Shown here piece by piece: positions 1,734-64,000 of a DNA stretch of 64,000 bases. Positions within the stretch are counted from its first letter, which is position 1. The number at the start of each line of letters is the position of its first letter. The position numbers and the translations under genes are program-made. Source of the stretch: Frondihabitans sp. PhB188 (GTDB lineage Bacteria > Actinomycetota > Actinomycetes > Actinomycetales > Microbacteriaceae); the NCBI RefSeq assembly GCF_003752365.1, contig NZ_RJUO01000001.1, positions 682,001 to 746,000 of the forward strand, given 5' to 3'. Under the pieces are notes generated by a model. It ran no database searches. It was not told where the DNA came from and saw only the letters and a list, made by a program, of their open reading frames with translations.

Positions 1734-2282
1734 TCACACCGGCCAGCCCATCGCCGGCTCGAGAGGCACCCACTGGCCGTCGGCCTGACCGGCCTCCCTC
1801 GCGCAGCAGCGACCATCGGGGCTGATCCAGACCTCGGCCACTCCCGGCTGGACCGCCCGACCCGGCGTCGGCCCGGACCGCCGCGCGGTGCTGATCCGCA
1901 CCGGCAGCGGCACGCCGGCGACCGCCACGTCGACGCACCACGGCCCGGCGCCCGGGTGCTGCACGCGGGCCGCTCGCACGGCGTGGCGCCCGTATCTCGA
2001 GGCGATCTGGCGCAGGAACTCCTGCGCCACCGCCTCGGCCAGCCGCCCCGGGGCATGCACCCGCACCTCCGGGGCGCGCGTCGCCATCGGGGCGTCCTCC
2101 ACGTCGGGCGCCCCGACCCCGGGCATCCGCACGCCGACGACGGCGCCCCGGCCCAGCACCACCTCGACACGCGCGGCCCCGACTGGGACTTCGCCGGCGC
2201 GGCGTTCGAGCCGTCGCCGATCGTCGGCGACCGACGGCGCTTCGGCTACCGGACCACGCCGTGGAGCAGTTCGTCTTCTCAT
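1734..2282 (-). CDS. Hypothetical protein
   Basis: An open frame of 182 codons on the minus strand that I do not recognise. The middle and C-terminal part reads like a real protein, with alternating hydrophobic strands (VEVVLGRGAVVGVRMPGV, WCVDVAVAGVPLPVRIS, AEVWISPDGRCC) and third positions rich in G/C; the first 30 residues are Arg-rich and the start may lie further inside. No signal peptide or membrane segment is seen. It lies 199 bp downstream of the zinc-ribbon/FHA gene on the same strand and may be the tail of that locus. It carries one copy of the 12-mer at 2009. Opposite-strand frames at 1888-2433 look like shadows. Confidence 0.5.
   Translation of the reverse strand: MRRRTAPRRGPVAEAPSVADDRRRLERRAGEVPVGAARVEVVLGRGAVVGVRMPGVGAPDVEDAPMATRAPEVRVHAPGRLAEAVAQEFLRQIASRYGRHAVRAARVQHPGAGPWCVDVAVAGVPLPVRISTARRSGPTPGRAVQPGVAEVWISPDGRCCAREAGQADGQWVPLEPAMGWPV
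2009..2020 (+). repeat. 12-mer GGCGCAGGAACT, copy 1
   Basis: Exact copy, followed at once by CTCCTGCGCC, so 2009-2028 is nearly its own reverse complement. It lies in the hypothetical gene, which reads it in reverse as EFLRQ. Confidence 0.6.
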
Positions 2283-2394
2283 GCCATCAGCGAAGCGGAG
2301 TCCAGGGCCAGCCGGTCATCATCCGGCGCGATCTGTGGAGAACTCCGGCCCCGCGAGGCCTGTGGAGAGCTGCGCCCCGCTGTCAGCCGTGTTT

Positions 2395-2452
2395 CTTATG
2401 AGCTGCGCCTCTTATGAGCTGCGCCTCTTGTGAGCTGCGCCTCTTGTGAGCC
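2395..2452. repeat. 16-bp tandem repeat, about 3.6 copies
   Basis: The unit CTTATGAGCTGCGCCT occurs at 2395, 2411 and 2427 (the third with G for A at the fourth position), with a partial fourth copy at 2443. It sits in the 199-bp gap between the zinc-ribbon/FHA gene and the hypothetical protein. Looser relatives (TGTGGAGAGCTGCGCC) are seen just to the left at 2361-2376. The rest of this gap holds nothing else I recognise. Confidence 0.8.
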
Positions 2453-2481
2453 GTGCTGTCGAGAGCCGCGCCGTCGGCGAG

Positions 2482-4500
2482 TCAGTTGACGATGAAGAAC
2501 TGCTCGCCAATCTCGATCCGCGAGCCGCGGGCGACTCGGACGCGCTTGCCCGGCTCGACCCGGCGCACCTCGCTCGTCGGCATGTGCACGACGGTGCCGT
2601 TGCCGCTCCAGCGGTCGGAGATCCAGAGGGCGCCGTCGTCCTGGCCGAACTCGAGGTGGGTCTTCGAGACCGAGCGGCCCGGATCGAAGATGCGCACGAG
2701 CAGGTCGATCGCCTCGCCGGGCTGCGGGGTCGGGGCGCGGCCGACGAGGCCGGTCCCCTGCACCGTGAAGCTCTCACCCGTCGAGAACTGCAGCACGAAG
2801 GGCTCGCCGAGGGGGGCCCGCGCGACGATCCGGGTGTTCTCGGTGTCGTCGGCGGGCGCGCCGAGGTGCACGGCCCACGGGGCTGCCGAGGGCTCCGGCT
2901 GCGGCACCGGCGGCACGTCGGGGATGGCGGCGGGAAGCGGCTGGACCTCTGACGTCGGGGTCGCCCGCACCGGAGGCTCGCTCGGCCCCGAGGCCGGCGC
3001 GGGCACAGAGGACGGCAGCGGCGCGGGAACGGCCTGCGCGGCCACCGGCGGCTCCGACTGCGCCGGCGCCGAGGCCGGTGTCGCCGGGCCGGCCGCAGGC
3101 ATCGGCGGCACCTCGGCGGTCGGCGATGAGGCGCTGGCTCCCGACCAGAGCTGAGGCCCGCGGTCGGCCTGGCGGCGGCCGAACAGGCGCCGGCGCTTCG
3201 CCGCGGGCTCAGGGTCGGCGACGAACGGCGGCAGGGCCGGCGTCGACGCGGACGGCAGCGGCGTCGGGGCGAGCGGTGCCTCGCGCGGGGCGGGGACGTC
3301 GGCGGGTGCGGCGACCGGCGTGCTGACGGGCCCCGAAGCAGACGCGGGCCGATTCGGCGTCGGAGCCGGCGCGGAGGCCGGCGCCGACTGCGCTGACGCG
3401 GGCGGCAGCGACGGGATGGGGCCGGTGAACGCCTGGGCGATGTGCTCGACGACGATGCCGCACTCGCCGCAGAAGATGTCGTCCTCGCCGATGGGCGCGC
3501 CGCAGTTCGTGCAGCGGACCCGTCCCGCCTCCCGGTGGGCACCGGGGGCGACCAAGGGGGCGGCGGCAGGCGCCGCTGAGGCGAGCGGCGGGATGACGTC
3601 GGTGTCGCCCTGCGCGGACGCGTCGCGGGCGGCCTGCGTGGCGGCGGGACGCACGTCGGCCGGAGCCGAGACCGGAGCTGACGCCGGGGCGGGCGCCGCG
3701 GCAGACGAGGGCGCGCCGGCAGACGAGGGCGCGTCGGCAGACGAGGGCGCGGCGGCAGACGAGGGCGGCGTGAGCGGCGATGCGGGACGCACGGCAGCGG
3801 GAGTAGCCGACTCCGACTCCGACGCCTGAGGCGCGGCGGACACCGGCTCTCCATCGGCGGTGATCGGCGTGATCGACGCCGTCCAGAGAGGGACGGAACC
3901 TGGGCGCGACCCGCTCTCCGCCGCACCGGGCGGGCGGAGGGGCGTGGGTGACGACGCGGCGGGCGGAGGGAGCTCGGCAGGAGCGGGCGAGGCCGCCGCA
4001 GGCGGACCGGACGGCGCGGGGGCGGACGGCGCGGCGTGAGCCCCGGCGACCGGAGCCGCCGGCGCGGGTGCGGGCTCGGCGGGGGCGGCCCGGAGTTCCT
4101 GCGCCCCCGGCTCGTCGTCGACGCTCGAGGAGGCGACTGCCGCCGTGTCGTTCAGGAAGGCCGACGACTCGTCGAATGCCGAGGCGGGCTGCGAGAGGGG
4201 AGCCGGCTGCGACGCAGGTGCGGGCGCGGGGACCGGGTCGTCGACCACGTCGGAGTCGTCGTCTTCGTCACGGGGCTCGTCGCCCTCATTCACCCACCAC
4301 GGCGTCCCGGCGGGCACGGACGCGACGGGAGGCTCGCGCAGCGCCCACGGACGCACGCCCTCGGGCCGCTCGTCGACGGGCGGCGTCGCGCCCTCGGAGG
4401 CGCGGAACGCTGCCCAGTCGGAGGTCGTGATCGCGCGGCCGCACTGGCCGCAGAACATGGCTCCGTCCGGCAGTGGACTCGAGCAGGTGGGGCAACGCAT
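2482..4500 (-). CDS. Double zinc-ribbon / FHA domain protein
   Basis: A 672-residue soluble protein. Residues 1-22 form a zinc ribbon (CPTC...CGQC). A second ribbon (CTNC...CGEC) follows near residue 330, between two very long Ala/Pro/Ser-rich linkers. The last 100 residues are an FHA domain (GLVGRAP, then SVSKTHLEF and WISDRWSGNGT), the fold that binds phosphothreonine. It follows the transglutaminase-fold gene by 15 bp and ends the locus that starts with a kinase/phosphatase pair, so it is a natural reader of phosphorylated partners in the cytoplasm. The linkers contain an 18-bp tandem repeat (3701-3772) and one 12-mer copy. The partner is inference; the domains are clear. Confidence 0.85.
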   Translation of the reverse strand: MRCPTCSSPLPDGAMFCGQCGRAITTSDWAAFRASEGATPPVDERPEGVRPWALREPPVASVPAGTPWWVNEGDEPRDEDDDSDVVDDPVPAPAPASQPAPLSQPASAFDESSAFLNDTAAVASSSVDDEPGAQELRAAPAEPAPAPAAPVAGAHAAPSAPAPSGPPAAASPAPAELPPPAASSPTPLRPPGAAESGSRPGSVPLWTASITPITADGEPVSAAPQASESESATPAAVRPASPLTPPSSAAAPSSADAPSSAGAPSSAAAPAPASAPVSAPADVRPAATQAARDASAQGDTDVIPPLASAAPAAAPLVAPGAHREAGRVRCTNCGAPIGEDDIFCGECGIVVEHIAQAFTGPIPSLPPASAQSAPASAPAPTPNRPASASGPVSTPVAAPADVPAPREAPLAPTPLPSASTPALPPFVADPEPAAKRRRLFGRRQADRGPQLWSGASASSPTAEVPPMPAAGPATPASAPAQSEPPVAAQAVPAPLPSSVPAPASGPSEPPVRATPTSEVQPLPAAIPDVPPVPQPEPSAAPWAVHLGAPADDTENTRIVARAPLGEPFVLQFSTGESFTVQGTGLVGRAPTPQPGEAIDLLVRIFDPGRSVSKTHLEFGQDDGALWISDRWSGNGTVVHMPTSEVRRVEPGKRVRVARGSRIEIGEQFFIVN
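3701..3772. repeat. 18-bp tandem repeat in the FHA protein linker
   Basis: Four copies of a unit beginning GCAGACGAGGGCGCG at 3701, 3719, 3737 and 3755. In the minus-strand gene it encodes a repeated six-residue linker (SSADAP, SSAGAP, SSAAAP). Slippage in such a repeat would change linker length without changing frame. Confidence 0.75.
4094..4105 (-). repeat. 12-mer GGCGCAGGAACT, copy 2
   Basis: Exact copy on the minus strand inside the zinc-ribbon/FHA gene, read GCG-CAG-GAA-CTC (AQEL). Confidence 0.6.
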
Positions 4501-4515: not shown

Positions 4516-6888
4516 CTAACGCTTCGAAGGCTTCCGGCTATGGTATCCGCGCAGCGACCGGGTCGAGACCGCCGCGGCGAAGCGCTGCCAGCGGGTCAGG
4601 TTGTCGTCGAGGCCGCCGCGCATCTCGCCGACGGCCTTCCAGACGCGATCGGCCTCCGACTTGCCTGCCGGTTCGGGTGCGAACACTGACCGGTCGACGA
4701 CCCGCGCGAGCACGCCCGCGCGCGAGCTGCCGACGGTGGTCGCCACCTCGGAGCGCGTCGCGGTCGGCACCGGCTCGATGCCGTGGTCGACGACGGCGTC
4801 CTGGTACTCCTGCCAGCCGCTCGTCATTCTCTGCGCAGGATCCCGCAGCCGCCGTCGTCTCGCCCGCCGCCGCGCCTTCAGCGCCACGATGGTGAGGAAC
4901 GGCGCCATCACGATGCCGGCCCCGAGCGCGACCCAGCCGGCGATGCGGCCGACGAGAAGCAGGATCGCCACCCAGGCGGGCTGGTCGGCGGGGTTGTCCT
5001 GCTTGCTCTGGGGCTGCGCCTGGTTGTTCTGCGGGTCGGCCTCCTGCTGCGGAGGCTGGATGACCGACTGCGGCCGCGACACCTGGTCGGGGTCGGTCTG
5101 CGTGTCTTTGGGGATCGTGCGCGGTTCGGGGTTCGGGTCGAGCGACACCCAGCCGTACTGCGCGGTGTCGACCTCGATGCGCGCCGTGATGTCGCCGCCC
5201 GTGAACGTCGTCGTGCCGCCGGTCGACTCGGTCGAGGAGAATCCGAGCACGACTCGAGCCGGGAATCCCAGCTGGTCGGCCATCAGCGCGGCGGCGGCCG
5301 CATACTGCTCGGCGTCGCCGAGCATGATCGGGTCGGTGAACAGCTGGGTGAGGCGGTCCGTCCCGTGGCCGGAGCGGCTCACCGGCTCGTCTGCTCCCAC
5401 GCCGTGGCTCACGTAGCCGTCGCTCCTCAGGCCCTTGAGGGCCGCCTGCAGCCGCGCGCCCTGGCCGCTGACGCCGTCGACGTAGGACTGCAGGCGCGTC
5501 TTGAGCGCCTGCGGCACGTTCGTCGGGCTCGGAACCGACGAGCTGCCCGGAGTGAGGCCCTCGAGATCGCCCGTCGACGGCTGCCGCGGGTCGACGGCGG
5601 TCAGCCGGTACGACACCCCCCGCCCGATGTCGCCGACCACGGCCGCCGTGCCGGTCGTGTCGTTGAAGAAGAACGAGTCGCGGAGGGTTCCGGCGTCGCT
5701 GCCCGAGAAGTCGATCGACTCGAGCTTGCCGACCGTCGGGAGCCAGACGCCGGAGTACCCGTCGACCGTGACGTCGATGGACTGCTGGGTGCCGCTCACC
5801 TTCGACTGGTCGAACGACGTCGGCACCCGGGTGAACGTACCCGATGCCGTCGACACCTGGTCGCTGCCGACGGAGTACTCGACCCCGTCGTACGTGTCGA
5901 GAGCGGCGATGCGCAGGAACTGCCCCGACGTCAATCCCGTCACCGTGAGCTGGGGGCGGTCGACCGTCGGCGTCTGCTCGTAGGAGCGGAAGCCGCTGAG
6001 CGGGCTCACGTAGTCGCGGGGATCGAACGGCTTCACCACGGCGTCTCGAGCGACCCAGCGTGCGCCCGCCGGCGCGAGCGTCGTCGTGGCCGCGACGGCC
6101 GCCGCCGAGGCGATCGCCAGCGTGAGTACCGCTCCCCCGATGGCCCGGCGCGCCACAGCGCTGTTTCCGGTGCGCTGCGACGACACGTTCGCGCCCGGCG
6201 TGATCCGCAGCAGGCGCTCGATGGACTGCCGACGGCGCCGCAGCCGCCACCAGACCACCCAGATGATCGACGCGGCCAAGAGCACGAGCCCGGTGACGAG
6301 GGGCAGCAGCGCCTCCGTCGGGCCGAACACGATCCCGGCGATGTAGATGACGACGGGAGGGATCAGAGCCAGCTCGCCGCGACGGCTTCGCAGCGCAGTG
6401 GACAGCCCGACGGTCGTGCCGACCAGCACCAGCACGAGCGCCGGCACGAGCAGCGCCTGGTAGCTGCCCACCGGCAGGGTGATCGTGAGCAGCTGCTTCC
6501 AGCTCGTCGACACGCCGACGACCAGTTCGCGCAGGCCCTCCAGCGACGGGAGCACTCCGTAGATCGCCTGGTTCGGCACGGCCAGGGCGACTCCGAACAG
6601 CGCGAAGGCGATCACGACCAGCACGAGGAGCCAGAAGCTCGAGAGGCGCAGGAACGTGCCCGCCAACGCGATCGCGGCGCCGAGCGCGAACGCGGCCGCC
6701 ACCAGCACGACGAACGCGCCGTCGCGGTACACCGGCCAGAAGGTCGACGACGCCACCGCGACGATGACGAAGAACGCGCCGGTCTGCGCGAGCGCGAAGC
6801 CGACCCGCACCCGCGGAGTCCTCGAACGGGGTCGGAGGCCCTGACGGGCATCGGCGACGGGAAGCGGTCGGCCCGCGATCGCGCTCAT
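4516..6888 (-). CDS. Transglutaminase-fold membrane protein, catalytic residues lost
   Basis: A 790-residue protein with the layout of TgpA-like (DUF3488/transglutaminase) proteins: several membrane helices in residues 25-200, a large outer domain with the transglutaminase-like core around 510-590, one more helix near 660, and a basic cytoplasmic tail. In active families the core reads G-x-C-E-Q-[FY]-A, then HAW, then DP. Here the Cys position is Ala526 (GDAEQYA) and the His position is Thr568 (ITARIEV); only Asp584 (LDPNPEP) is kept. Protease or transferase activity is therefore unlikely, and a binding or structural role is inferred. The ATG at 6888 overlaps the DUF58 stop (ATGA), giving coupled translation with DUF58. 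Confidence 0.85.
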   Translation of the reverse strand: MSAIAGRPLPVADARQGLRPRSRTPRVRVGFALAQTGAFFVIVAVASSTFWPVYRDGAFVVLVAAAFALGAAIALAGTFLRLSSFWLLVLVVIAFALFGVALAVPNQAIYGVLPSLEGLRELVVGVSTSWKQLLTITLPVGSYQALLVPALVLVLVGTTVGLSTALRSRRGELALIPPVVIYIAGIVFGPTEALLPLVTGLVLLAASIIWVVWWRLRRRRQSIERLLRITPGANVSSQRTGNSAVARRAIGGAVLTLAIASAAAVAATTTLAPAGARWVARDAVVKPFDPRDYVSPLSGFRSYEQTPTVDRPQLTVTGLTSGQFLRIAALDTYDGVEYSVGSDQVSTASGTFTRVPTSFDQSKVSGTQQSIDVTVDGYSGVWLPTVGKLESIDFSGSDAGTLRDSFFFNDTTGTAAVVGDIGRGVSYRLTAVDPRQPSTGDLEGLTPGSSSVPSPTNVPQALKTRLQSYVDGVSGQGARLQAALKGLRSDGYVSHGVGADEPVSRSGHGTDRLTQLFTDPIMLGDAEQYAAAAALMADQLGFPARVVLGFSSTESTGGTTTFTGGDITARIEVDTAQYGWVSLDPNPEPRTIPKDTQTDPDQVSRPQSVIQPPQQEADPQNNQAQPQSKQDNPADQPAWVAILLLVGRIAGWVALGAGIVMAPFLTIVALKARRRARRRRLRDPAQRMTSGWQEYQDAVVDHGIEPVPTATRSEVATTVGSSRAGVLARVVDRSVFAPEPAGKSEADRVWKAVGEMRGGLDDNLTRWQRFAAAVSTRSLRGYHSRKPSKR

Positions 6889-9430: not shown

Positions 9431-12400
9431 TCACGGCGTGTCGCTCGTCCGGTAAGTCTTCTCGTAAGTCTGGCCGCCGTTGGCAGTGACACGGATGTCC
9501 AGGGTCGGCAGCAGCAGATCGACGCCCGTGATCTGGCACGAGTTGACCCCGTCGACCGCCGCCGTCCACGTTCCGCCCGAGCACTGGTACTCGAACTGCT
9601 CGTAGTCCGGGTTCGACACGACGCTGAAGTTGAACGACCAGGTGCCTTGCGTGCCGTCCGGGTTCTGGTAGTCGAGCCCGGAGACGTTGGTGCTGACCGG
9701 CGTGATCGACACCGCATCGGAGGCGGGCCCGCAGAACGAGGTCGTGGCGTCTCGGCAGCCGCGGAACGTGTACGACTGCGCCGTTCCGTAGACCGAGGAG
9801 TCGGCGGCGCTCGTGAGCGTGTCGTTCACCGCGACCGAGGTCCAGACGCCGCCTCGCTTGAGCTGGTAGTAGGGCGACGTCCCGCTGGCGACGCCCAGGG
9901 AGTCGACGTGCACGTCGAAGTTGCCGTTGCTGCTGTTGCTCAGGCTGAGAGTCGCCGTCGCCTGCCCGGGCGCCGTCAGGCTCTGCACCCCGTCGATGCG
10001 GGCCGACGAGCAGAAGTAGCCGTTGTCGGCGTAGACGTAGTAGACGTACGAGCGGCCGTCGACGGCGGTCGCGTCGCGGTAGGTCGTGGCCGACTGCGCT
10101 CCCCCGATCGCACCCGGCTTCGAGGACGTCGAGCACGCCGGGGTGCCGGCGGGCGTGTTCGCATCGGCTCGGCCGACGGTGTAGCTAATACCCGAGCCGC
10201 CGTTCGAGCCGACTCCCGCCCATGCAAGGGCGATGACGCCTGACTTGTCGCTGGACGCGGTGATGCCGGTCACGCTCGACGGGGTGCCGGCCGGCGAGCC
10301 GGTCGCCGTGGCGCTCCGCGCCCAGTCGGCGGTGCTCGACACCTGCGCGGAGTTCTTCGCGTACACCTGCACGCTGTACTGCGCACCCGGCGACAGCCCG
10401 GTGATGGTGGTCGACGTGCTGCCGCCCGCGACGTCGACCGAGCCGGGGGCTCCGGATCCTGCGATCTCGACCGTGTAACCCGTGACCGACGTGCCCTTGG
10501 CCGGCTTCGGCACGGTGTTCCACGAGACCACGACGGCGCCTGGGGTGACGGTGGAGGGAGAGACCGAGACGCCGGTGGGGGCGGCCGGCACGAAGTCGGC
10601 GCTGTACTGGATGCTCTGGGGGCTCGACGCGGAGGCCCCGATGCTGTTGATGGCCTGCACGCTGAAGCGGTAGAGCGCCCCGGGGTCGAGGTCGGTCAGG
10701 GTGCAGACGGTCGACGTGCCGCAGTCTTTCGTGTATGACCCGGCCGACGACGTGCCCGTCAGGCGGTACGAGGTGATCGCCGAGTTGTTGGACACCGGGG
10801 CCTGATACGTCAGAGTCAGCTGGCCGCCGATGAACGTGCCCGAGCGGATCGGCGCGGCGGGGGCGTCGGGGACGTCCTGGACCGAGATCGTGATGTCGCC
10901 GAAGACGTCCCGGTCGGGATCGCCCGTGACGTCGGCGATCTCGTACTGGAGGTGGGCGTTGACCGGCTTCGCCGACTTCGCCACCGTCACGGTCAGCTTG
11001 CTGTTGTCGGCGGACGGCTTGACCGCGACGCCGGCCGGGAGCGACGCGCCCTCGAGGCCGCGGATCGCGATCACGCGGAGGGGCTGGCCCGGGAAGGGGT
11101 TCGTGGCCTGGTCGTTGGCGAGCACGTCGACAACGGTCGTCGAGCCGCGCCTGGCGACGGCCTCGTCGGACGCCGCTATCGCCAGCGGACGCGTCGAACC
11201 CACGACGGTCAGGCCGATGGTGCCCGATTGCGGAGCCGAGGTGGTGTCGCGCACGGTGAGGCCGATCCTAGCCGTGGTGCCCTTGGTCGCCGACGAGCTC
11301 GCCGTGACCGTGAGCTGGGTGCCCGAGAGCCGGACGCTGAACCCCGGCACCGACGTAGTCGTGACGGCATACCTCAGCTCGCCGATGTCGTTCGGGTAGT
11401 TGTAGGTCGTCAGGCGCGTGAGATCGAGGGTGCGCGACTCGTTCGGCTCGAGGTCGAGAGCGGACGCCTCGAGCACCGGCGGCTGGTTCTGCCGCGCCGT
11501 GACCGTGATGGGGAGCACCAGCGTCGCGGTGTGGCCGTCGGGATCGGCCGCGGAAGAGCCGTCGGTCACCTGGAACGAGATCGACGCCTGGCCGAAGAAC
11601 CCCTTCTCGGAGGTGAAGACGAGGGTCGTCGCGTTCTGAACGAGGTCGGCACCGTCGGCGTGCGTCGCGCGGACCGTCGAGCTGTCGGTGAGACGGACGC
11701 CGTTGCTGCCGGTCGAGATCACGTAGCGGTTGAGGTCGATCGTGAGCGCCTTCTCGCTGACCACGGACAGCGCGGGGGCGGTCTCGTTGATCTGCGGGAG
11801 AGCGTCGTCGAAGCCGGGCACTCGGATGAAGGCGTAGGCCTTGATGGACGGGTCGTCGGGGTGCGACACCCAGAACGGGATGATCTGGCTGGTGTCGGTG
11901 ATCGTGACGCGGATCCGGTGGTTCGCCGTCACCTGGGCCGTGTCGCCGTAGCCCGGCACGAGGCCGAGGCCGAGGGTCGAGACGTTGCCGTCGGCGAAGA
12001 AGACGTTCGCGAGCACGTTCACGTCGACGGTCTTGCGGTTGAGCACGTCGGTGAGCGACAGGACGCTGTCTTGAGCCTCGGGGTAGTTGAGCTCGGAGTT
12101 CGGGTCGACCTTGACCGAGATGAAGGTCGAGCTGGTTCCGCCGGAGTCGTTGGCGACCGTGTAGACGAGCCCGTAGGTCTTGGCCGCACGAGGCGGCGTG
12201 ACCCGGACCACGCCGCCGGCGAGGATCGTCGCCGTCACGTCGGCGTCGTTGGGCTTCACGCCGGTGACGCGGAGGGAGCCGCCGTCGGGGTCGGAGTCGT
12301 TCGCGAGGACCCTCACCAGGATGCTGCCGCCGGGGCGCATCGTGACGGAGTCGGCGACGGCGATCGGGTTGCTCGACCCCTGCGCCTTGGGAGCGATGCC

Positions 12401-15274
12401 GATCCGGATCGTGCCGGTCGCGCGAGCACCGAGCCCGTCGACGACCGTGTAGGTGAAGGTGTCGGTGCCGGCCGAGTAGCTGCCCGCGTCGTAGTCGATG
12501 TAGTCGGAGCCGACCGACGCGACATTGCCCTTCTCGGGGTTCGTGTCGACGCCGAGCAGCTGCACGCTGTCGCCGTCGGGGTCGATGTCGTCGAGCGGCA
12601 CCTGGACCCGGACGCTCTGTCCCGCGACGACCCGGCCGGTCAGGGTCTCGGGCACGGGGGCCGTGTTGGTCGACGCGTCGGACTCGCGGACCGCGATGCT
12701 CACCTGAGCGGTCGCCCGCTGACCGTCGGGTCCTTCGATTGCGTACTCGGCGGTGAAGTTGCCTGGCGTCTTGGGCGCCAGGTAGCGGAGCTTGGTGCCC
12801 GACACGAACAGCAGCCCGCCGCCGGAGGTGACGTTCTTCACCAGCTTCGGCTCGAGGGCGATGTCCTCGCCGTCGGGTTGCTCGTCGTTCGCCAGCACGT
12901 CGATGTCGACCGCCGCTCCGACTCGCGCCGTGACCTGGTCGTTCGTCGCGATCGGGGGCTGGAGGCGGTCGGGCTTCGGGATCTGCACGACGGTCACCGA
13001 GCCGGGTGCCGACGCCAGGCCGTTCGAGACCGTGTACGTGAAGGTGACGGGAGCCTCGAGCACCCTGGTCAGGGTGATCCGGAGGTCGCGCTGCTCGAGC
13101 GTCTGCACCTGCACCCCGGAGTCGATCGACGGAGTCGCGGTCTTCGTGACCATGAGGACGTTGCCCGCCGGGTCGAAGTCGCTCGCCGTGATATCGACGG
13201 TCTGCGTGCTCAGAGTCTGGACGAAGACCGTCTTCGGGATCGTGATCGGCGCGGTGTTCGGCTCGGGCGGATCGACGACGTCGACGCGGATGGTGCCTGT
13301 GGCGGTCTTGTCGCCGTCCGTCACCGTGTACTCGAGCAGGTGCGGCCCGCCGACGGACGACGTGAAGGTGAACGTGCCTGCCGAGTAGCTCGGCGTGATC
13401 GTCGCGCCCGACTTGGCCGGGACGCTGTTCAGCTTGAGTGAACCGGTGCCGCCCGACGCGTACGGCATCGGGTTGATGGTCGTGACCTTGTCTTTGTCGG
13501 TCTCGACCGAGAACGAGCTCGCCGTGAGGGGGACGTCGCCGCCCGCCGAGACCTTGATCGACAGAGTGCCGCGGCCGACCGCCGTGCCGTCGGACATCGA
13601 CAGCACGATCTCCTGCGTGGACGGGCCCTCGCCCGAGTCCTGGTAGACGACCTCGCCGGTGGGCTTGAACGTGACCGTGCCCCCGGAGGCACCCGACGCT
13701 CCGGTCAGGTAGAACGGATCGCCGTCCGGATCGACCCACGATCCCAGCGTGTTCAGGGTGACGCGTCCGGACGACGAGACGTCGGCGCTCTCGACCCGCA
13801 CCTGCTGCGGAGGGCTGTTCGTGCCGAGCTGGTGGACCCCCACGGTGACGTGAGCGGAGTCGGAGCCGCCGCGGCCGTCCGAGATCGAGTAGTCGAAGGT
13901 GACCGACCCGGCGGCGGTCGCCGGGAGCGTCAGGAGGATCTGCTGCCGGTTCGCGACGATCTCGACCTTGGCCGAGCTCGGCGACGGCGTCGACACGTCC
14001 GTGATGACGATCGGGTCGCCGTTCGGGTCGTAGTCGTTCAGCAGCACCGGCAGGAGAGTCGCCCGTGAGGGCCGGGCGCCGAGCAGGTCGTCTTTGGCGA
14101 CCGGCGGCTTCTGCTGGACCTCGAGCTTGTCGGGGTCGTCGCTCGGCTTCTGATTCGGATCGGTCGTGTCGGTCTCGTCGTTGATGAGGTCGGACCAGTT
14201 GTCGATCAGCTGGCCGCCCCGCTGAACCGCCCACGAGTCGCCGCTGGCCTCGTCGTTGAGCACGACCTTCGATCCGTTGACCGCGAAGGCCAGAGACGCC
14301 GACGCCGCCATCGACCTGAGCACGGTGTCGGACCCCGCCGCCGAGGAGCAGTCGTTCCAGCCGGTTCCGTCGGCCCAGGCCGCGTACGTGCAGCCGCCCG
14401 CGACGACCGGGCGAGCGGGATCGCCGGCGCGGCCGGTGACGACCTTCGACACGCTGCCGCCGAACGAGACGTCGAGGAGGCCCTCCTCCGACGCCACGGT
14501 CACCCCCGATCCGATGTCGGACGACTCCTGCAGCGCCACCGTGCCGGTGACCTCCGGCGACAGGTCGACCGGGTCGCCGTCGATGACCAGCCTGTTCGTG
14601 TCGGTGTCGAGCACGGCCCAGTGCGACCCGATCGTGGCTACCTGGTAGGCGTCGCGCTTCGGCAGCCGGAGCTTGGCATGGCTCGACACCCCGAATTCGC
14701 TGAGGCTGTCGATGCGCGAGACCTCGGCGCTGTCGGGCGAGTAGGCGATCATCGTGCCCGAGGGCGTCATGCCGGTGACGACCGACGACCCGAGGCTGAG
14801 ATCGGCCTGCGCCGAGGCGTCGAATGCCCCGAGCGCCGACACGGGCGTCGACCAGAACTCGCCCGTCTCGCCCGAGACGATCACCGCCGTCCCACCGGCC
14901 AGCAGCACTGCCGGCTTGTCGGGTGGCAACGGCACGGTCTGCGACACCTCCGCCGTGGCGGGGTCGACCGCGCCGACCGTCGCGTTGCTGCGGTCGACCA
15001 GCAGCACGTGCGAGGCGTCCTGCACGACGGAGACATCCGTCCCGCTGCTGCGCACGGCCGAGTTCAGCTCGAGCACGGCGGGGTTCGCGCGGCCGATCGC
15101 CGACTTCGACTGATTCGCCACCCAGACGGTGCCGTCGTTCAGGTCGAGTCGCTGAGCCTGGTACCCGGGACTCGTGAGCCCGATCGTCGCGGCCACCGCC
15201 GCGATGGCGATGGTCGCGACCGCGGTCGCCGTGAACGAGCGACGCGAGCGCAGGAACTGCACGAGCCTCTTCAC
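9431..15274 (-). CDS. Giant membrane-anchored surface protein (propeller-like, Ig/cadherin-like and FN3 repeats)
   Basis: A 1947-residue protein. Residues 13-33 form a signal anchor after a basic start. Residues 40-360 contain repeated short beta motifs (DGTVWVANQ, VGAVDPATAEV) that suggest a beta-propeller. From about 390 to 1460 there are many Ig/cadherin-like modules with acidic loops such as NDYDPNGDP, VDPDGDP, NDSDPDGG and DDIDPDGD, which in related modules can bind calcium. From about 1468 to the end there are FN3-like domains (PDAPAAP..., SYRLTG, PGALYRFSVQAIN). No sortase signal or second membrane helix is seen. The GTG start at 15274 overlaps the kinase stop (GTGA). Most of it should lie outside the cell; a structural or adhesive role is inferred. 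Confidence 0.85.
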   Translation of the reverse strand: MKRLVQFLRSRRSFTATAVATIAIAAVAATIGLTSPGYQAQRLDLNDGTVWVANQSKSAIGRANPAVLELNSAVRSSGTDVSVVQDASHVLLVDRSNATVGAVDPATAEVSQTVPLPPDKPAVLLAGGTAVIVSGETGEFWSTPVSALGAFDASAQADLSLGSSVVTGMTPSGTMIAYSPDSAEVSRIDSLSEFGVSSHAKLRLPKRDAYQVATIGSHWAVLDTDTNRLVIDGDPVDLSPEVTGTVALQESSDIGSGVTVASEEGLLDVSFGGSVSKVVTGRAGDPARPVVAGGCTYAAWADGTGWNDCSSAAGSDTVLRSMAASASLAFAVNGSKVVLNDEASGDSWAVQRGGQLIDNWSDLINDETDTTDPNQKPSDDPDKLEVQQKPPVAKDDLLGARPSRATLLPVLLNDYDPNGDPIVITDVSTPSPSSAKVEIVANRQQILLTLPATAAGSVTFDYSISDGRGGSDSAHVTVGVHQLGTNSPPQQVRVESADVSSSGRVTLNTLGSWVDPDGDPFYLTGASGASGGTVTFKPTGEVVYQDSGEGPSTQEIVLSMSDGTAVGRGTLSIKVSAGGDVPLTASSFSVETDKDKVTTINPMPYASGGTGSLKLNSVPAKSGATITPSYSAGTFTFTSSVGGPHLLEYTVTDGDKTATGTIRVDVVDPPEPNTAPITIPKTVFVQTLSTQTVDITASDFDPAGNVLMVTKTATPSIDSGVQVQTLEQRDLRITLTRVLEAPVTFTYTVSNGLASAPGSVTVVQIPKPDRLQPPIATNDQVTARVGAAVDIDVLANDEQPDGEDIALEPKLVKNVTSGGGLLFVSGTKLRYLAPKTPGNFTAEYAIEGPDGQRATAQVSIAVRESDASTNTAPVPETLTGRVVAGQSVRVQVPLDDIDPDGDSVQLLGVDTNPEKGNVASVGSDYIDYDAGSYSAGTDTFTYTVVDGLGARATGTIRIGIAPKAQGSSNPIAVADSVTMRPGGSILVRVLANDSDPDGGSLRVTGVKPNDADVTATILAGGVVRVTPPRAAKTYGLVYTVANDSGGTSSTFISVKVDPNSELNYPEAQDSVLSLTDVLNRKTVDVNVLANVFFADGNVSTLGLGLVPGYGDTAQVTANHRIRVTITDTSQIIPFWVSHPDDPSIKAYAFIRVPGFDDALPQINETAPALSVVSEKALTIDLNRYVISTGSNGVRLTDSSTVRATHADGADLVQNATTLVFTSEKGFFGQASISFQVTDGSSAADPDGHTATLVLPITVTARQNQPPVLEASALDLEPNESRTLDLTRLTTYNYPNDIGELRYAVTTTSVPGFSVRLSGTQLTVTASSSATKGTTARIGLTVRDTTSAPQSGTIGLTVVGSTRPLAIAASDEAVARRGSTTVVDVLANDQATNPFPGQPLRVIAIRGLEGASLPAGVAVKPSADNSKLTVTVAKSAKPVNAHLQYEIADVTGDPDRDVFGDITISVQDVPDAPAAPIRSGTFIGGQLTLTYQAPVSNNSAITSYRLTGTSSAGSYTKDCGTSTVCTLTDLDPGALYRFSVQAINSIGASASSPQSIQYSADFVPAAPTGVSVSPSTVTPGAVVVSWNTVPKPAKGTSVTGYTVEIAGSGAPGSVDVAGGSTSTTITGLSPGAQYSVQVYAKNSAQVSSTADWARSATATGSPAGTPSSVTGITASSDKSGVIALAWAGVGSNGGSGISYTVGRADANTPAGTPACSTSSKPGAIGGAQSATTYRDATAVDGRSYVYYVYADNGYFCSSARIDGVQSLTAPGQATATLSLSNSSNGNFDVHVDSLGVASGTSPYYQLKRGGVWTSVAVNDTLTSAADSSVYGTAQSYTFRGCRDATTSFCGPASDAVSITPVSTNVSGLDYQNPDGTQGTWSFNFSVVSNPDYEQFEYQCSGGTWTAAVDGVNSCQITGVDLLLPTLDIRVTANGGQTYEKTYRTSDTP

Positions 15275-42100: not shown

Positions 42101-42112
42101 AGTTCCTGCGCC
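42101..42112 (-). repeat. 12-mer GGCGCAGGAACT, copy 5 (intergenic)
   Basis: Exact copy on the minus strand, the only exact copy outside a gene. It lies between the convergent lipoprotein and hydrolase genes. Confidence 0.6.
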
Positions 42113-47326: not shown

Positions 47327-47338
47327 GGCGCAGGAACT
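47327..47338 (+). repeat. 12-mer GGCGCAGGAACT, copy 6
   Basis: Exact copy in the patatin-like gene, read GGC-GCA-GGA-ACT (GAGT). Confidence 0.6.
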
Positions 47339-49559: not shown

Positions 49560-49571
49560 GGCGCAGGAACT
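49560..49571 (+). repeat. 12-mer GGCGCAGGAACT, copy 7
   Basis: Exact copy in the second part of the patatin-like gene, read GCG-CAG-GAA-CTC (AQEL). Confidence 0.6.
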
Positions 49572-57863: not shown

Positions 57864-58687
57864 CCGCACCCCGCACCATCGTCGTGACCGGAGCCTCGAG
57901 CGGCATCGGCCGCAAGGCTGCGATCGCCCTCGCCGAAGGCGGTGCCGAGCTCGTCGTGGTCGGCCGCGACCGGCAGCGCACCGAGCAGGTGGCCCGCGAC
58001 GTGGGCGGCGAGGCGCACGTGTGCGACTTCGACCGGCTCGACGATGTGAGGTCGCTGGCGCAGGAACTCCTGGCGGCCCACCCCCGCATCGACGTGCTCG
58101 CCAACAACGCGGGCGGCCTCGTGAGCCAGCGCTCGACGACGGCGGACGGCTTCGAGCGGACACTCCAGTCGAACCACCTCGCGCCGTTCCTGCTCACCCG
58201 TCTGCTTCTCGACCGGATCGTCGAATCGGGCGGGCGCGTCGTGTCGACCTCGAGCACGGCGAACTTCTTCGGCCAGGTGCGGCTCGACGACCTGAACTGG
58301 GCCAAGCGCCCCTGGCTCGGCGGCTGGGGTGCGTACGGCACCAGCAAGCTGCTCACGAACATGTTCATCTCGCAGCTGGCGCGCCGCTCCCCCGTCAAGG
58401 CGTTCGCGTTTCACCCCGGGTTCGTGTCGACGGGGTTCGGTCGCGATTCGCGGTCGATGCGCATGGTCAACCTCCTGACGAACGGCAACTACGGCATCTC
58501 GGCCGACGCCGGAGCCGTGCCGCTGATCCAGCTGGCCGGACCCACCACGATCGGCGTCGCGAGCGGCACCTACTTCGATCAGCTCAAGCCCGGGGGCCTT
58601 CAGTCGCCGCAGGCGCGCAACGTCGAGCTCGCCGAGGTCGTCTGGAACAAGTCGTCCGAGCTGGTGGGGCTGCCGGCGGCCGTCTGA
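57860..58687 (+). CDS. Short-chain dehydrogenase/reductase
   Basis: A 275-residue SDR of the classical fold with NAD(P) binding at TGASSGIGRKAA (residues 10-21), NNAGG near 90, catalytic Ser in STSSTANF near 130 and the YGTSK Tyr/Lys pair near 160. An inserted segment between Ser and Tyr (GQVRLDDLNWAKRPWLGGWG) is like retinol-dehydrogenase or WW-domain oxidoreductase type SDRs. GRD at residue 35 suggests NADP preference. It is the last gene of the Lpd-like operon and carries one 12-mer copy. The substrate is not known. Confidence 0.9.
   Translation: MTAPRTIVVTGASSGIGRKAAIALAEGGAELVVVGRDRQRTEQVARDVGGEAHVCDFDRLDDVRSLAQELLAAHPRIDVLANNAGGLVSQRSTTADGFERTLQSNHLAPFLLTRLLLDRIVESGGRVVSTSSTANFFGQVRLDDLNWAKRPWLGGWGAYGTSKLLTNMFISQLARRSPVKAFAFHPGFVSTGFGRDSRSMRMVNLLTNGNYGISADAGAVPLIQLAGPTTIGVASGTYFDQLKPGGLQSPQARNVELAEVVWNKSSELVGLPAAV
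58057..58068 (+). repeat. 12-mer GGCGCAGGAACT, copy 8
   Basis: Exact copy in the SDR gene, read GCG-CAG-GAA-CTC (AQEL), followed by CCTGG so that CAGGA-AC-TCCTG is an inverted repeat. Confidence 0.6.
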
Positions 58688-59845: not shown

Positions 59846-60850
59846 GTGAAGAAGGGCGCGCTCGTCGCAGGCATCGCGCTGCTGGCCGCCGCCCTGACGG
59901 GCTGCGCCCCCGACGACACCACAGAGGGCGCAGGAACTGCCTGCGGCAGCTTCCCCGTCACCATCGAGTCGTCGTTGGGCGACGCCGTCATCCCGGAGAA
60001 GCCGAAGCGTGTCGTCACGCTCGGCCAGGGTTCCGCCGACACGGTCTTCGCCCTCGGAACGACACCCGTCGGCGTCGAGATCGACACCTGGGGAGGCGAC
60101 TCCGACGGCTACCAGCCCTGGTTCCGCACCGCCGTCGAGAAAGCCGGCGACGACCTGCCCGAGCTGATCACGTCGACGCCCGAGATCGACGTCGAGTCGA
60201 TCGTCGAGCTCGACCCCGACGTGATCCTCGCACCGCAGTCGGGCCTGTCGCAGAAGCAGTTCGACACCCTGAGCGCCCTCGCGCCGACCGTGGCGTACCC
60301 GGGCGACGCCTGGAGCACCGCGTGGGACGACCAGATCGAGATCATCGGCCAGGCGCTCGGCCAGAGCGACGACGCCGACGACCTCGTCGACGACATCGAC
60401 GCACGGCTGGCGGCGGTCGCGACCGAGAATCCCGAGTTCGCCGATCACAGCTTCGCGTACCTCTACACGGGCGAGGTCGGAGCGCTCGGCGTCTTCCAGG
60501 AGAACGAGCCGCGCGCGGCGATCCTGTCGAAGATGGGCCTGCGAATCGATCCCGTCGTCGCCGAGCAGCCGGTCACCGAGGGCACGGCCTCGTCCGTGCT
60601 GGGCCTCGAGAAGGCCGACCTGTTCGACGACACCGACCTCATCTTCACGTTCTACAGCGACGCGGCGTCGAAGAAGCAGATCGAGGCGCAGCCGCTATAC
60701 GGGGCGATCCCGGCCGTCGAGCGCGGCTCGCTGGTCTCGACGAGCGACCAGTCGTTCGTGACGGCGTCGAGCCTGATCACCCCGCTGACCGTTCCGTACG
60801 TCGTCGACGACTACGTCGGCATGATCCACCGCGCCATCGACGCGCTCTGA
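59810..60850 (+). CDS. Iron-siderophore ABC transporter, substrate-binding lipoprotein 1
   Basis: A 346-residue (or 334 from the third GTG) FecB/FhuD-type binding protein. The signal VKKGALVAGIALLAAALTGC ends in the lipobox LTGC; the mature domain has KRVVTLGQGSADTVFALGTTPVGVE and EIDVESIVELDPDVILAPQSGL, typical of periplasmic-binding family 2 for ferric siderophores. Three GTG starts are possible because of an 18-bp repeat; the third alone gives a normal signal peptide. It overlaps the SIP gene and is followed by a paralogue. One 12-mer copy lies just after the lipobox. Confidence 0.92.
   Translation: MRTSTDVRTSTDVKKGALVAGIALLAAALTGCAPDDTTEGAGTACGSFPVTIESSLGDAVIPEKPKRVVTLGQGSADTVFALGTTPVGVEIDTWGGDSDGYQPWFRTAVEKAGDDLPELITSTPEIDVESIVELDPDVILAPQSGLSQKQFDTLSALAPTVAYPGDAWSTAWDDQIEIIGQALGQSDDADDLVDDIDARLAAVATENPEFADHSFAYLYTGEVGALGVFQENEPRAAILSKMGLRIDPVVAEQPVTEGTASSVLGLEKADLFDDTDLIFTFYSDAASKKQIEAQPLYGAIPAVERGSLVSTSDQSFVTASSLITPLTVPYVVDDYVGMIHRAIDAL
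59927..59938 (+). repeat. 12-mer GGCGCAGGAACT, copy 9
   Basis: Exact copy in the first binding-lipoprotein gene, read GGC-GCA-GGA-ACT (GAGT). Confidence 0.6.
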
Positions 60851-61935: not shown

Positions 61936-62989
61936 CACCCTCTCGACGACCACCCCGAGGGCCCGGCGCACGTCGCCGGGCCCTCGCCGGGCGTCGGGGC
62001 CCGCCGCCCGCACGCTCGTCCCGGCCCTGTTCCTGGCGGCCGGCGTGCTCGCCCTCGCGACGCTTCTCAGCGTCGCGGTCGGCACGCACTACGTGCCCCT
62101 GCCGACGGTGTGGAACGCCCTGCTCCACCCCGGCACGACCTACGACGACACCGTCGTTCAGAGCCGCATCCCCCGCACGGTACTCGGCCTGCTGGTCGGC
62201 GCGGCCCTCGCCGTCTCCGGGGTGATCGTGCAGGGTCTCACCCGCAACCCGCTCGGCGACCCCGGTCTGCTGGGCGTCAACGTCGGCGCCGCCGCGGCCA
62301 TCGTCACCGGCCTCGCGTTCTTCGGCATCGGCAACGGGTCGACGCGCATCCTTCTCGCCCTGCCGGGCGCTCTCGTCGCGGTCGTCGCCGTGTACGCCCT
62401 GGGCTCCAGCCGCCGCGGGGCGACGCCCGTGAAGCTCGTGCTGGCCGGCGCCGTGATCAGCGCCGTACTCTCCGCCTACATCCAGGCGGTCACCCTCACC
62501 CACCCGGCGGCGTTCAACAGCTACCGCTTCTGGGTCCTCGGCTCGCTCGCCGGGCGCGACCCCGGTGTGATCCTCGAGGTGCTCCCCTACCTCGTGGCGG
62601 GGTTCCTGCTGACGCTGACCCTGCCCGGCTCCCTGAACGCGCTCGCCCTCGGCGACGACACGGCCACGGCCCTCGGCGCCAAGATCGGCCGCACCCGCAT
62701 CATCGGCGGGCTCGCCGCCGCACTGCTCTGCGCCGGCTCGACGGCCGCCGTCGGACCCATCGCGTTCATCGGGCTCGCCGTCCCGCACATCATCCGCAGC
62801 TTCGCCGGCGGCGACCACCGCTGGCTGCTGCCGTTCAGCGCTCTGCTCGGGCCGGCGCTGCTGCTGCTCGCCGACGTGATCGGCCGCGTCGTGGCGAGCC
62901 CGCAAGAGCTGGAGGTGGGGGTGGTGACGGCCTTCCTCGGCGCGCCCGTGCTGCTCTGGGCCGTGCGGCGGATGCGGGGGCGCGAATGA
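61928..62989 (+). CDS. Iron-siderophore ABC transporter permease 1 (FecCD family)
   Basis: A 353-residue integral membrane protein of the BtuC/FecCD family with some nine to ten helices. Family signatures: SRIPRTVLGLLVGAALAVSG, GLTRNPLGDPGLLGVNVGAA near residue 100, and VGPIAFIGLAVPHIIRSFAG near 275, which docks the ATPase. A TTG start at 61928 is inferred; it overlaps the binding-protein gene by 8 bp. It overlaps the second permease by 4 bp, and the two form the channel as a heterodimer. Confidence 0.92.
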   Translation: MADTLSTTTPRARRTSPGPRRASGPAARTLVPALFLAAGVLALATLLSVAVGTHYVPLPTVWNALLHPGTTYDDTVVQSRIPRTVLGLLVGAALAVSGVIVQGLTRNPLGDPGLLGVNVGAAAAIVTGLAFFGIGNGSTRILLALPGALVAVVAVYALGSSRRGATPVKLVLAGAVISAVLSAYIQAVTLTHPAAFNSYRFWVLGSLAGRDPGVILEVLPYLVAGFLLTLTLPGSLNALALGDDTATALGAKIGRTRIIGGLAAALLCAGSTAAVGPIAFIGLAVPHIIRSFAGGDHRWLLPFSALLGPALLLLADVIGRVVASPQELEVGVVTAFLGAPVLLWAVRRMRGRE

Positions 62990-64000
62990 GCGCGCCGAGC
63001 TCGCGCTGCACGGGGTCGGGCCAGTTCCTGCGCCAGGGCCCCGTCTCACCGCGACCCGTGCTGCGCATGGGAACGTGGCTCAGCCTGCCGGTGCGCCGCC
63101 GCTCGGTGGTCGTCGGTGCGATCCTCGCGCTCGGGCTGCTGGTGCTGACGCTCCTGACGCTGACTCTCGGCACCCTCGGCGTGCCGCTCGCCGAGCTGCC
63201 CCGCGCGATCGTCGACCCGGCCCCGGGACGCACCGAGTTCGTGCTGAACGTGCTGCGCGGGCCTCGACTGATCACCGCCATCGCGACGGGTGCCGCCCTC
63301 GGAGTCGCCGGCGCCCTGTTCCAGACGGTGACGCGCAACCCGCTCGGCTCCCCCGACGTGATCGGGCTCGGCGCGGGCGCGAGTGCGGGGGCGGCCTGCT
63401 TCGGGCTTCTGATCCCCGGACTGATCCCGGTACCGGCCGGCGCGCTCGTCGGCGCGCTCGCCGCCATGGGCCTGGTCTGGCTCGGCACCGGACGCGGGTT
63501 CTCGTCGCCCGGGCGGATGATCCTCGTCGGCATCGGGGTGTCGGCGATGGCCGTCGCGTTCGTGCAGTTCGTGCTGACGCGCGCCGGCCAGCAGGAGGCG
63601 ACGACGCTCGCCACCTACATCAGCGGCACGTTCGCCGACCGGCAGTGGAGCGACGTCGCGATCTCGGGCCTCACGGTCGCGGTGCTGGTGCCGTGCGCGC
63701 TGCTGCTGAGCCGCCGCCTCGACCTGGTCGAGATGGGCGACGAGCTGGCCGATTCCCTCGGCGGCCGCACCACGCTCACCCGGTCGCTCGTCGTGCTCGT
63801 CGCGATCGGCCTGGCCACGGGCGCCGTCTCGGCCACCGGGCCGATCGCGTTCGTCGCGCTGACCGCCCCGCAGGTCGCTCGCCGTCTCGCCAAGGCTCCC
63901 GGCGCCGGGATCCTCCTCTCAGGCCTCATGGGCGCCGTCATCATGACGGCCGCCGACCTCCTCGTGCAGCAGTCGCCGTTCGGCGTGCAGCTGCCGGTCG
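62986..64000 (+). CDS. Iron-siderophore ABC transporter permease 2 (FecCD family), partial
   Basis: The first 338 codons of a second BtuC/FecCD permease, cut by the window end. From the ATG at 62986, which overlaps the previous stop (ATGA), the protein has a polar start of some 40 residues, then hydrophobic helices; GPRLITAIATGAALGVAGALF, TRNPLGSPDVIGLGAGASAG and ATGPIAFVALTAPQVAR are family motifs. Only a short C-terminal part seems to be missing. An ATP-binding subunit would be expected next, outside the window. Confidence 0.92.
   Translation, partial: MSAPSSRCTGSGQFLRQGPVSPRPVLRMGTWLSLPVRRRSVVVGAILALGLLVLTLLTLTLGTLGVPLAELPRAIVDPAPGRTEFVLNVLRGPRLITAIATGAALGVAGALFQTVTRNPLGSPDVIGLGAGASAGAACFGLLIPGLIPVPAGALVGALAAMGLVWLGTGRGFSSPGRMILVGIGVSAMAVAFVQFVLTRAGQQEATTLATYISGTFADRQWSDVAISGLTVAVLVPCALLLSRRLDLVEMGDELADSLGGRTTLTRSLVVLVAIGLATGAVSATGPIAFVALTAPQVARRLAKAPGAGILLSGLMGAVIMTAADLLVQQSPFGVQLPV
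63023..63034 (-). repeat. 12-mer GGCGCAGGAACT, copy 10
   Basis: Exact copy on the minus strand, in the polar start of the second permease gene, which reads it as QFLRQ. Confidence 0.6.

What the first reader, a model, noticed from the sequence alone, without database searches (positions are those of the whole stretch)
2009..63034. A strongly over-represented 12-mer, GGCGCAGGAACT, spread through the window
Ten exact copies were found by reading: plus strand at 2009, 47327, 49560, 58057 and 59927; minus strand at 4094, 27528, 30229, 42101 and 63023. At about 70% G+C, roughly 0.015 copies would be expected on both strands. Near copies (one mismatch) occur at about 5910, 6645, 15247, 33978, 44646 and 48824. 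Protein constraint does not explain it: copies are read as AQEL (four), GAGT (three) and FLR (two, in reverse), and one is intergenic. The codons are unusual for this genome (GAA rather than GAG in every AQEL; GCA-GGA-ACT in every GAGT). Some copies carry a nearby partial inverted copy (2009, 27528, 58057). This suggests selection on the DNA, for example a recombination hotspot, DNA-uptake, chromosome-organisation or nucleoid-protein site. Seven of nine genic copies run with the gene.
Basis: partly seen in the sequence, partly recalled or inferred. Interest (0 to 1): 0.75.

Follow-up and report, generated by a model that had tools for sequence, protein, structure and literature searches.

The report
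Species-specific DNA watermark in Frondihabitans
An actinobacterium of the genus Frondihabitans carries about 400 exact copies of a 12-letter DNA word scattered over its genome, and its sister species carry different versions of the same word; this looks like the self-recognition tags that a few other bacteria use to take up DNA of their own kind, though no experiment has shown that here.

Summary
All ten exact and seven one-mismatch copies are in the window. The 3.79 Mb genome has 391, and 0 of the reversed control; none of 397 other family genomes searched exceeds 11. A codon-preserving null gives 3.3 in called genes against 50 observed.

The 12-mer is one dialect. All seven held genomes of the genus (Frondihabitans, Microbacteriaceae) have enriched words built on GCAGGA with different 3' ends. 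This genome also keeps a fossil of its sisters' dialect, mostly inside genes. Copies lie on both strands without local polarity, are absent from the sampled plasmid-like contigs, and carry a one-sided C-rich tract downstream.

Best reading: a DNA uptake sequence-like system, described so far for Neisseriaceae and Pasteurellaceae. A type IV pilus locus and comEA-comEC are present. The receptor is unknown: minor-pilin divergence does not track dialect, and GGAT-centred words abound in genera where PilM and PilC were not found. No uptake was tested.

The parts
2009..2020 (+). exact copy of GGCGCAGGAACT
   Evidence: no gene called over it by the simple caller
4094..4105 (-). exact copy
   Evidence: no gene called over it
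5910..5921 (+). one-mismatch copy (TGCGCAGGAACT)
6645..6656 (+). one-mismatch copy (GGCGCAGGAACG); GCAGGAAC is present here in four of six relatives too, so it may be protein-constrained
15247..15258 (+). one-mismatch copy (AGCGCAGGAACT)
27528..27539 (-). exact copy, sense in called gene 27321-28757
29531..29539 (+). core copy GCAGGAACT; relative G004 has GCAGGATC, its own dialect, at the aligned place
30229..30240 (-). exact copy, sense in called gene 29547-30404
33978..33989 (+). one-mismatch copy (GGCGCAGGAACA)
42101..42112 (-). exact copy, no gene called over it; in the gapped alignment G004 has GCAGGATC here, but the stricter ungapped test counts it as not aligned
44646..44657 (+). one-mismatch copy (AGCGCAGGAACT)
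47327..47338 (+). exact copy, sense in called gene 47267-48445
48824..48835 (-). one-mismatch copy (GGCGCAGGAACG)
49560..49571 (+). exact copy, sense in called gene 48445-49704
58057..58068 (+). exact copy, sense in called gene 57860-58687
59927..59938 (+). exact copy, sense in called gene 59846-60850
63023..63034 (-). exact copy, no gene called over it
10455..10462 (-). GCAGGATC (sister-species dialect word); same word in G006 and G005 at the aligned place
21753..21760 (+). GCAGGATC (sister-species dialect word), same in five of six relatives (may be protein-constrained)
27944..27951 (+). GCAGGATC (sister-species dialect word); same word in G006 and G001 at the aligned place

Best explanation
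The word is the core of a DNA uptake-signal-like element of this Frondihabitans species: roughly GGGCGCAGGAACTCS followed by a C-rich tract from about 16 to 37 bases after the core's first G. A DNA receptor on the cell surface would bind it, so that fragments of the species' own chromosome are preferentially taken up and recombined. Each recombination favours alleles that carry the word, so it accumulates at permissive sites on both strands. When receptor specificity shifts, a new word accumulates and the old one decays, which gives dialects. SHOWN: enrichment, dialects, fossil dialect, strand symmetry, downstream tract, absence from sampled plasmid-like contigs, a complete-looking type IV pilus locus, comEA and comEC. 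INFERRED: that the bacterium takes up DNA, that the word is recognised during uptake, that drive by recombination caused the accumulation, and that some receptor changed specificity.
For: Genome-wide excess restricted to this species, beyond Markov and codon-preserving nulls. All seven held genus genomes have GCAGGA-based dialect words. Dialect distance follows RpoB distance (Spearman 0.71, exhaustive Mantel p 0.012, one of seven proteins tried, uncorrected), as DUS dialects follow core-genome phylogeny (abstract and passages of PMC3630211). Of the 16 words GCGCAGGANN in this genome only AAC (121 vs 13.0 in genes) and the sister dialect ATC (46 vs 8.1) are clearly enriched. New words are 59 of 180 intergenic, old words 5 of 51 (Fisher p 0.0012). 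Strands balanced. C-rich downstream tract in this genome (z about 14; three control words -0.4 to 0.5) and significant for at least one word in five of six sister species, present in sense, antisense and intergenic copies. No site in 40 kb of contig C6 (11.3 expected) or 20 kb of C7 (5.7 expected); C6 has a TrwC relaxase, both have ArdC. Pilus locus PilB-PilT-PilC-PilA-minor pilins-PilD-PilM-PilN-PilO; paired T2SSE genes in all seven; ComEA and ComEC.
Against: No transformation, uptake or binding was tested. Minor-pilin distance does not correlate with dialect distance (Spearman -0.10 to -0.13, Mantel p 0.63-0.69), so the obvious receptor candidates get no support. GGAT-centred words (CGGATGCC, CGGATCCG) are strongly enriched in genera in which neither PilM nor PilC was found (G085, G107, G133, G062), and no clear word was seen at the PilB locus of pilus-bearing Frigoribacterium and Curtobacterium: across the family the pilus is neither needed for a word nor enough for one. 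Decayed one-off copies of the core are not in excess (77 observed vs 81.5 or 57.4 expected), whereas known uptake signals usually show some (recalled). The tract is not significant in G006, nor for G004 GCAGGATC or G002 GCAGGATGC, and is absent for CGGATGCC-type words. Absence from plasmids is expected for any slowly accumulated chromosomal word.
Confidence: 0.55

Rival explanations
1. A highly iterated word like cyanobacterial HIP1, kept by or co-evolving with a DNA methyltransferase or a repair process, without any role in uptake.
For: HIP1 is likewise very frequent, varies between lineages and is linked to methyltransferases (passages of PMC4390886). CGGATGCC reaches 4041 copies in a 3.9 Mb genome in which PilM and PilC were not found (G085), and G062 has a palindromic form, CGGATCCG, 112 vs 13.7.
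Against: The Frondihabitans words are not palindromic and carry a one-sided downstream tract. Turnover of hundreds of sites between sister species is easier by drive than by functional need (inference). Methyltransferases were not searched.
Confidence: 0.15
2. A Chi-like recombination signal read by a RecBCD/AddAB/AdnAB-type nuclease; its spread by biased gene conversion could also give dialects.
For: Over-represented, dispersed and non-palindromic; drive by recombination of incoming linear DNA would work the same way (inference).
Against: No local strand polarity in ten genomes (own genome recounted by distinct sites: 125 vs 97, chi-square 12.8 on 31 df). Ten or more bases plus a tract is longer than known Chi sites of 5-8 bp (recalled). 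The nuclease genes were not examined and the replication origin was not mapped.
Confidence: 0.14
3. A binding site of a nucleoid or chromosome-organising protein.
For: Chromosome-wide, on both strands, absent from the sampled plasmid-like contigs.
Against: Near-random spacing (CV 0.91). In the aligned regions the sites sit mostly at places not conserved in relatives. A required site would not be expected to change sequence between sister species (inference).
Confidence: 0.1
4. A transcription-related signal such as a Rho-loading or terminator element (C-rich, G-poor downstream tract; densest between convergent genes).
For: Density 1.31 per kb between convergent genes, 0.80 tandem, 0.65 divergent, 0.28 overall; C-rich tract.
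Against: Copies inside called genes are as often sense as antisense (75 vs 74), where termination would be harmful; DUS also gather in permissive intergenic and terminator regions (passage of PMC3630211).
Confidence: 0.06

Closest known systems
DNA uptake sequence (DUS) of Neisseriaceae, receptor ComP
   Same: Short non-palindromic core in hundreds of chromosomal copies, dialects sharing a fixed inner core (CTG there, GCAGGA here), dialects following genome phylogeny, copies in permissive regions, type IV pilus with minor pilins (for DUS).
   Different: Unrelated sequence, Gram-positive actinobacterium, extra C-rich downstream tract, about one extended core per 3.5 kb; receptor and uptake not shown; minor pilins do not track dialect.
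Uptake signal sequence (USS) of Pasteurellaceae
   Same: Core plus a one-sided, less conserved downstream compositional tract; dialects with a fixed inner core (passages of PMC12616744).
   Different: USS tracts are AT-rich and two in number; here C-rich, and a two-patch shape seen in this genome did not replicate in sister species.
HIP1 of cyanobacteria
   Same: Highly iterated word with lineage variants (passages of PMC4390886).
   Different: Palindromic and linked to methyltransferases; the Frondihabitans words are not palindromic.
Chi and KOPS-type sites
   Same: Short over-represented chromosomal words.
   Different: Polar with respect to replication (recalled); no local polarity seen here.

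Membership tests
DNA uptake sequence / uptake signal sequence | short non-palindromic word in large excess, dispersed on both strands | tested here: met
   391 copies, 204 vs 187 by strand; codon-aware null; strand tests
DNA uptake sequence / uptake signal sequence | dialects between related species with a constant inner core | tested here: met
   seven of seven held genus genomes have GCAGGA-based words
DNA uptake sequence / uptake signal sequence | scarce in plasmids or recent foreign DNA | tested here: met
   0 sites in 60 kb of contigs C6 and C7 against 17.0 expected; plasmid nature inferred from relaxase, ArdC and IS genes; only 60 of 263 kb of these contigs was read
DNA uptake sequence / uptake signal sequence | uptake machinery: pilus, ComEA, ComEC | tested here: met
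   DprA not looked for; expression not testable
DNA uptake sequence / uptake signal sequence | natural transformation occurs and depends on the word | not testable with these tools
   needs a transformation and uptake assay
DNA uptake sequence / uptake signal sequence | receptor whose sequence follows the dialect | tested here: inconclusive
   minor pilins of this species are only 34-57% identical to its sisters' (mis-assigned G005 rows left out), but distances do not correlate with dialect
DNA uptake sequence / uptake signal sequence | excess of single-mismatch decayed copies | tested here: not met
   77 inner one-off copies vs 81.5 (order 5) or 57.4 (order 3) expected; usual in known systems but not defining (recalled)
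KOPS / Chi polar sites | strand bias along a replichore | tested here: not met
   no locus-level bias in ten genomes, own genome recounted; origin not mapped, so the test is on local bias only
HIP1-like palindrome | palindromic word | tested here: not met
   Frondihabitans words are not palindromic; the G062 word of another genus is
HIP1-like palindrome | cognate orphan methyltransferase | not tested
   methyltransferase genes and methylation were not examined
Dispersed transposable or repeat element | flanks alike between copies | tested here: not met
   flanks show only composition bias, no shared sequence

The most novel reading that the evidence does not exclude
A self-DNA recognition system with uptake-sequence dialects has arisen in Actinomycetota, independently of Neisseriaceae and Pasteurellaceae. 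The GGAT/GGAA-centred words in many Microbacteriaceae genera (CGGATGCC, CGGATCCG, GCAGGATC, GCAGGAACT) would be dialects of one old family-wide system that different species run on different pili (type IV pili or, as in Micrococcus luteus, Flp pili), and this genome was caught soon after a dialect switch.
Probability: 0.35. Interest if true: 0.92.

Novelty: new variant of a known kind. Interest (0 to 1): 0.8.

Why it matters
Uptake sequences are described for two proteobacterial families, and how they arise and change is an open question. A third, unrelated case in Gram-positive actinobacteria, with seven species showing different dialects and one genome holding both its new and its old word, would let dialect switching be studied directly and would suggest that self-selective DNA uptake limits gene flow between these bacteria. 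Even if uptake is wrong, a species-specific word at hundreds of sites with a one-sided tract needs a new explanation.

Tried and rejected
Protein or codon constraint: rejected by the within-gene synonymous permutation and by intergenic copies. Mobile or repeat element: flanks differ. KOPS/Chi polarity: no local strand bias. General inverted-pair element: only 8 neighbouring core pairs within 60 bp, 6 inverted, among 336 core sites. Pilus as a necessary partner across the family: PilM-positive genomes have more CGGATGCC per Mb (median 281, n = 61, vs 123, n = 59; p 6e-5), but among genomes above 2.4 Mb only p 0.018, and 19 of 59 PilM-negative genomes have a ratio to the reversed control above 5 (38 of 61 positives); PilC was not found in any of the 23 PilM-negative genomes searched with it, and was found in both positives. 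Minor pilins as dialect determinant: no correlation. ComEC presence: not informative, 118 of 120. Two-patch shape of the tract: seen in this genome, not replicated in sisters (profile correlation 0.19; 7 of 49 circular shifts as good). In-place dialect swap: 4 of 22 aligned GCAGGAAC sites have GCAGGATC in a relative, but control words do so too (GCAGGACC 6 of 9 sites, GCAGGAGC 0 of 13), so it is weak evidence. Words at the PilB locus of named genera: 38 of 80 loci scored for seven chosen words and 48 of 80 pooled by genus; nothing clear for Frigoribacterium, Curtobacterium or Leifsonia, CGGATGCC in the Cryobacterium/Mycetocola/Microterricola/Micrococcales pool. Papers: no paper in the library holds 'uptake sequence' with Microbacteriaceae, 'DNA uptake sequence' with Actinomycetota, or the four terms; one search gave one unrelated paper and one review (listings only); the word or its 11-mer occurs in 20 papers, none on this subject by title (listing only). 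The library lacks preprints and most subscription papers, so this is no proof of novelty.
Full report
OBSERVATION. The ten exact and seven one-mismatch copies are where stated. Over the assembly (3,793,925 bases, 10 contigs; window = contig C1, 682001-746000) there are 391 exact copies, 204 forward and 187 reverse, and none of the reversed control word. In 59 other genomes of genus, family and order the count is 0-8; the other six genomes held for the genus have 2-5; among 397 other family genomes the highest is 11. In an 833,178-base sample of this genome 93 copies stand against 1.98 expected from a fifth-order Markov model. With synonymous codons permuted inside each gene, 40 repeats, called genes should hold 3.3 (at most 7) and hold 50; for the 8-mer GCAGGAAC 244 against 50. 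My simple gene caller covers 81% of the sample, so some 'intergenic' copies (42 of 97 12-mers, with 5 at gene edges) may lie in missed genes.

ANATOMY. Substituting each base shows an almost invariant inner CGCAGGAAC with looser ends, about GGGCGCAGGAACTCS. On the 3' side the flank is C-rich and G-poor: skew 0.18 with z about 14 (n = 183 and 177 for the two 10-mers), against z between -0.4 and 0.5 for three control words; on the 5' side there is a much weaker opposite skew (-0.03 and -0.06, z -2.4 and -4.1), partly the GG of the motif itself. The tract spans roughly +16 to +37 and is seen in intergenic (73), sense (75) and antisense (74) sites alike. In sister species the tract has z of 6.4 and 4.7 (G001), 5.9 (G004 with CAGGATCC; 1.5 with GCAGGATC), 5.0 (G003), 3.6 (G002; 0.4 with GCAGGATGC), 3.1 (G005) and 1.1 (G006). 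For CGGATGCC-type words of seven other genomes it lies between -2.3 and 1.9. The fine two-patch shape did not replicate. Ten genomes show no local strand bias; recounted by distinct sites this genome has 125 on one strand and 97 on the other of the sampled contigs, chi-square 12.8 on 31 df for local bias. There are 222 distinct extended-core sites in 784 kb, one per 3.5 kb, with near-random spacing. Density is 1.31 per kb between convergent genes, 0.80 tandem, 0.65 divergent and 0.28 overall.

DIALECTS. The genus is Frondihabitans: contig lengths of G005 and G004 equal those of F. sucicola NBRC 108728 and Frondihabitans sp. Leaf304, and the tool places the window's genome in the same genus; lineage. 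With 100-160 kb from each sister, every one has enriched words on the same GCAGGA core: GCAGGATCC in G004 (16 vs 2.5), GCAGGATCG in G005 (19 vs 2.6) and G006 (23 vs 2.7), GCAGGATCC and GCAGGATGC in G002 (23 vs 1.7, 21 vs 4.3), GCAGGATGC and GCAGGAGCC in G003 (21 vs 2.4, 22 vs 4.0), GCAGGATCG and GCAGGAGCC in G001 (28 vs 4.5, 21 vs 3.6), against a codon-preserving null. Dialect distance follows RpoB distance (Spearman 0.71, p 0.012; one of seven proteins tried) and not minor-pilin distance.

FOSSIL DIALECT. In the window's genome, of all sixteen words GCGCAGGANN, only AAC (121 vs 13.0 in genes, 59 intergenic) and ATC (46 vs 8.1, 5 intergenic) are clearly enriched. The second is the word of the sisters. 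The new word is 33% intergenic, the old 10% (Fisher p 0.0012), as expected if old copies linger where sequence changes slowly and new ones appear first where it changes fast. The old word's downstream tract is weak here (z 2.5). Aligned sites show some direct T-to-A replacements (4 of 22 aligned sites), but controls make this weak. Most aligned sites are not conserved in relatives.

MOBILE DNA. Every chromosomal 20 kb locus of the sample has at least 2 sites. There are none in 40 kb of contig C6 (11.3 expected), 20 kb of C7 (5.7), 9 kb of C8 and C9 (2.6) and the first 20 kb of C2 (5.7). C6 carries a TrwC relaxase and ArdC, C7 ArdC and IS21-type transposition genes, so I take these two for plasmids; the nature of C8, C9 and the C2 end was not established. 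These stretches are lower in G+C, but six chromosomal loci of 0.655-0.684 G+C have 3-5 sites.

MACHINERY. Between rpoC and rpsL of this genome (gene names recalled from sequence) lie PilB, PilT, PilC, PilA, two proteins with a prepilin-like N-terminus, a PilX-like protein, PilD, PilM, a PilN candidate and PilO (Pfam support for PilT, PilC, PilA, one minor pilin, PilD, PilM and PilO; PilB by PF00437; PilN, PilX and the other minor pilin by position and N-terminus only). The T2SSE pair is in all seven genus genomes. ComEA (SLBB and helix-hairpin-helix) and ComEC lie side by side. The three minor pilins of this species are 41-45%, 34-50% and 49-57% identical to those of its sisters (G005 left out of the last two), while PilB is 92-95%. 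This is suggestive, but it does not track dialect.

WIDER FAMILY. CGGATGCC occurs 1000-4000 times in many other Microbacteriaceae (for example G085 4041, G129 3681, G091 3032) against about 100-200 of the reversed control, and codon-preserving nulls confirm GGAT-centred words in G011, G026, G108, G112, G091, G030, G107, G133 and G062, but not in G019, G022 or G029. PilM is found over the cut-off in 61 of 120 family genomes. High-count genomes without PilM exist, and PilC was not found in the 23 PilM-negative genomes searched. Either those genera use another machine - Flp pili serve transformation in Micrococcus luteus (passages of PMC4322843; Tad genes were not searched here) - or their words have another cause. 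The lack of the C-tract there allows the second.

JUDGEMENT. The pattern matches what is printed for DUS and USS: constant inner core, dialects, permissive sites, congruence with genome phylogeny (PMC3630211, abstract and passages; PMC12616744, passages). It fails or leaves open three points: no decayed copies in excess, no receptor link, no uptake data. I hold the uptake reading at 0.55. It works like an uptake sequence on paper; membership is not claimed.

Noticed in passing
family genomes G085, G129, G091, G030, G034, G107, G133: The octamer CGGATGCC occurs about 2800-4000 times per genome; in G107 it extends to GGATGCCTC (29 vs 1.2). PilM and PilC were not found in G085, G107 and G133.
   Followed up: partly
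G062, L153-L157: Palindromic CGGATCCG 112 vs 13.7 expected in 86 kb of called genes; PilM and PilC not found in this genome.
   Followed up: partly
G006: L069 1571-1966 and L102 7082-7477: Clusters of a repeat with consensus near GTACATATGGACGGAGAT in both orientations; among the top words only in this species.
   Followed up: no
G005 (F. sucicola): L104 6030-15113, L105 11221-11286: Seven copies of a word around GAAATCGAAGGGGAT, mostly in inverted pairs.
   Followed up: no
G002: L115 12490-17728: Seven copies of CATGTTGGCGCG, mostly 285 bases apart: an internally repeated gene that mimics an over-represented word.
   Followed up: no
L029 57-119 (start of C2) and L036 (C9): Long poly-G runs at contig ends, probably assembly artefacts; they top the raw word list.
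   Followed up: no
G005 pilus locus, L104-L105: Several pilus genes (PilC, a minor pilin, PilM) are called short or in pieces, suggesting frameshifts in that assembly or real breaks.
   Followed up: no
G019 L138-L142; G022 L143-L147: Other enriched words without GGAT: palindrome CACCGGTG (34 vs 7.9) and CCACAAGCG (10 vs 0.3).
   Followed up: no
G004 L100-L101, G006 L102-L103, G003 L108-L109, G001 L110-L111: Two or three tandem major-pilin (PilA-like) genes in these sister species, one in the window's species.
   Followed up: no
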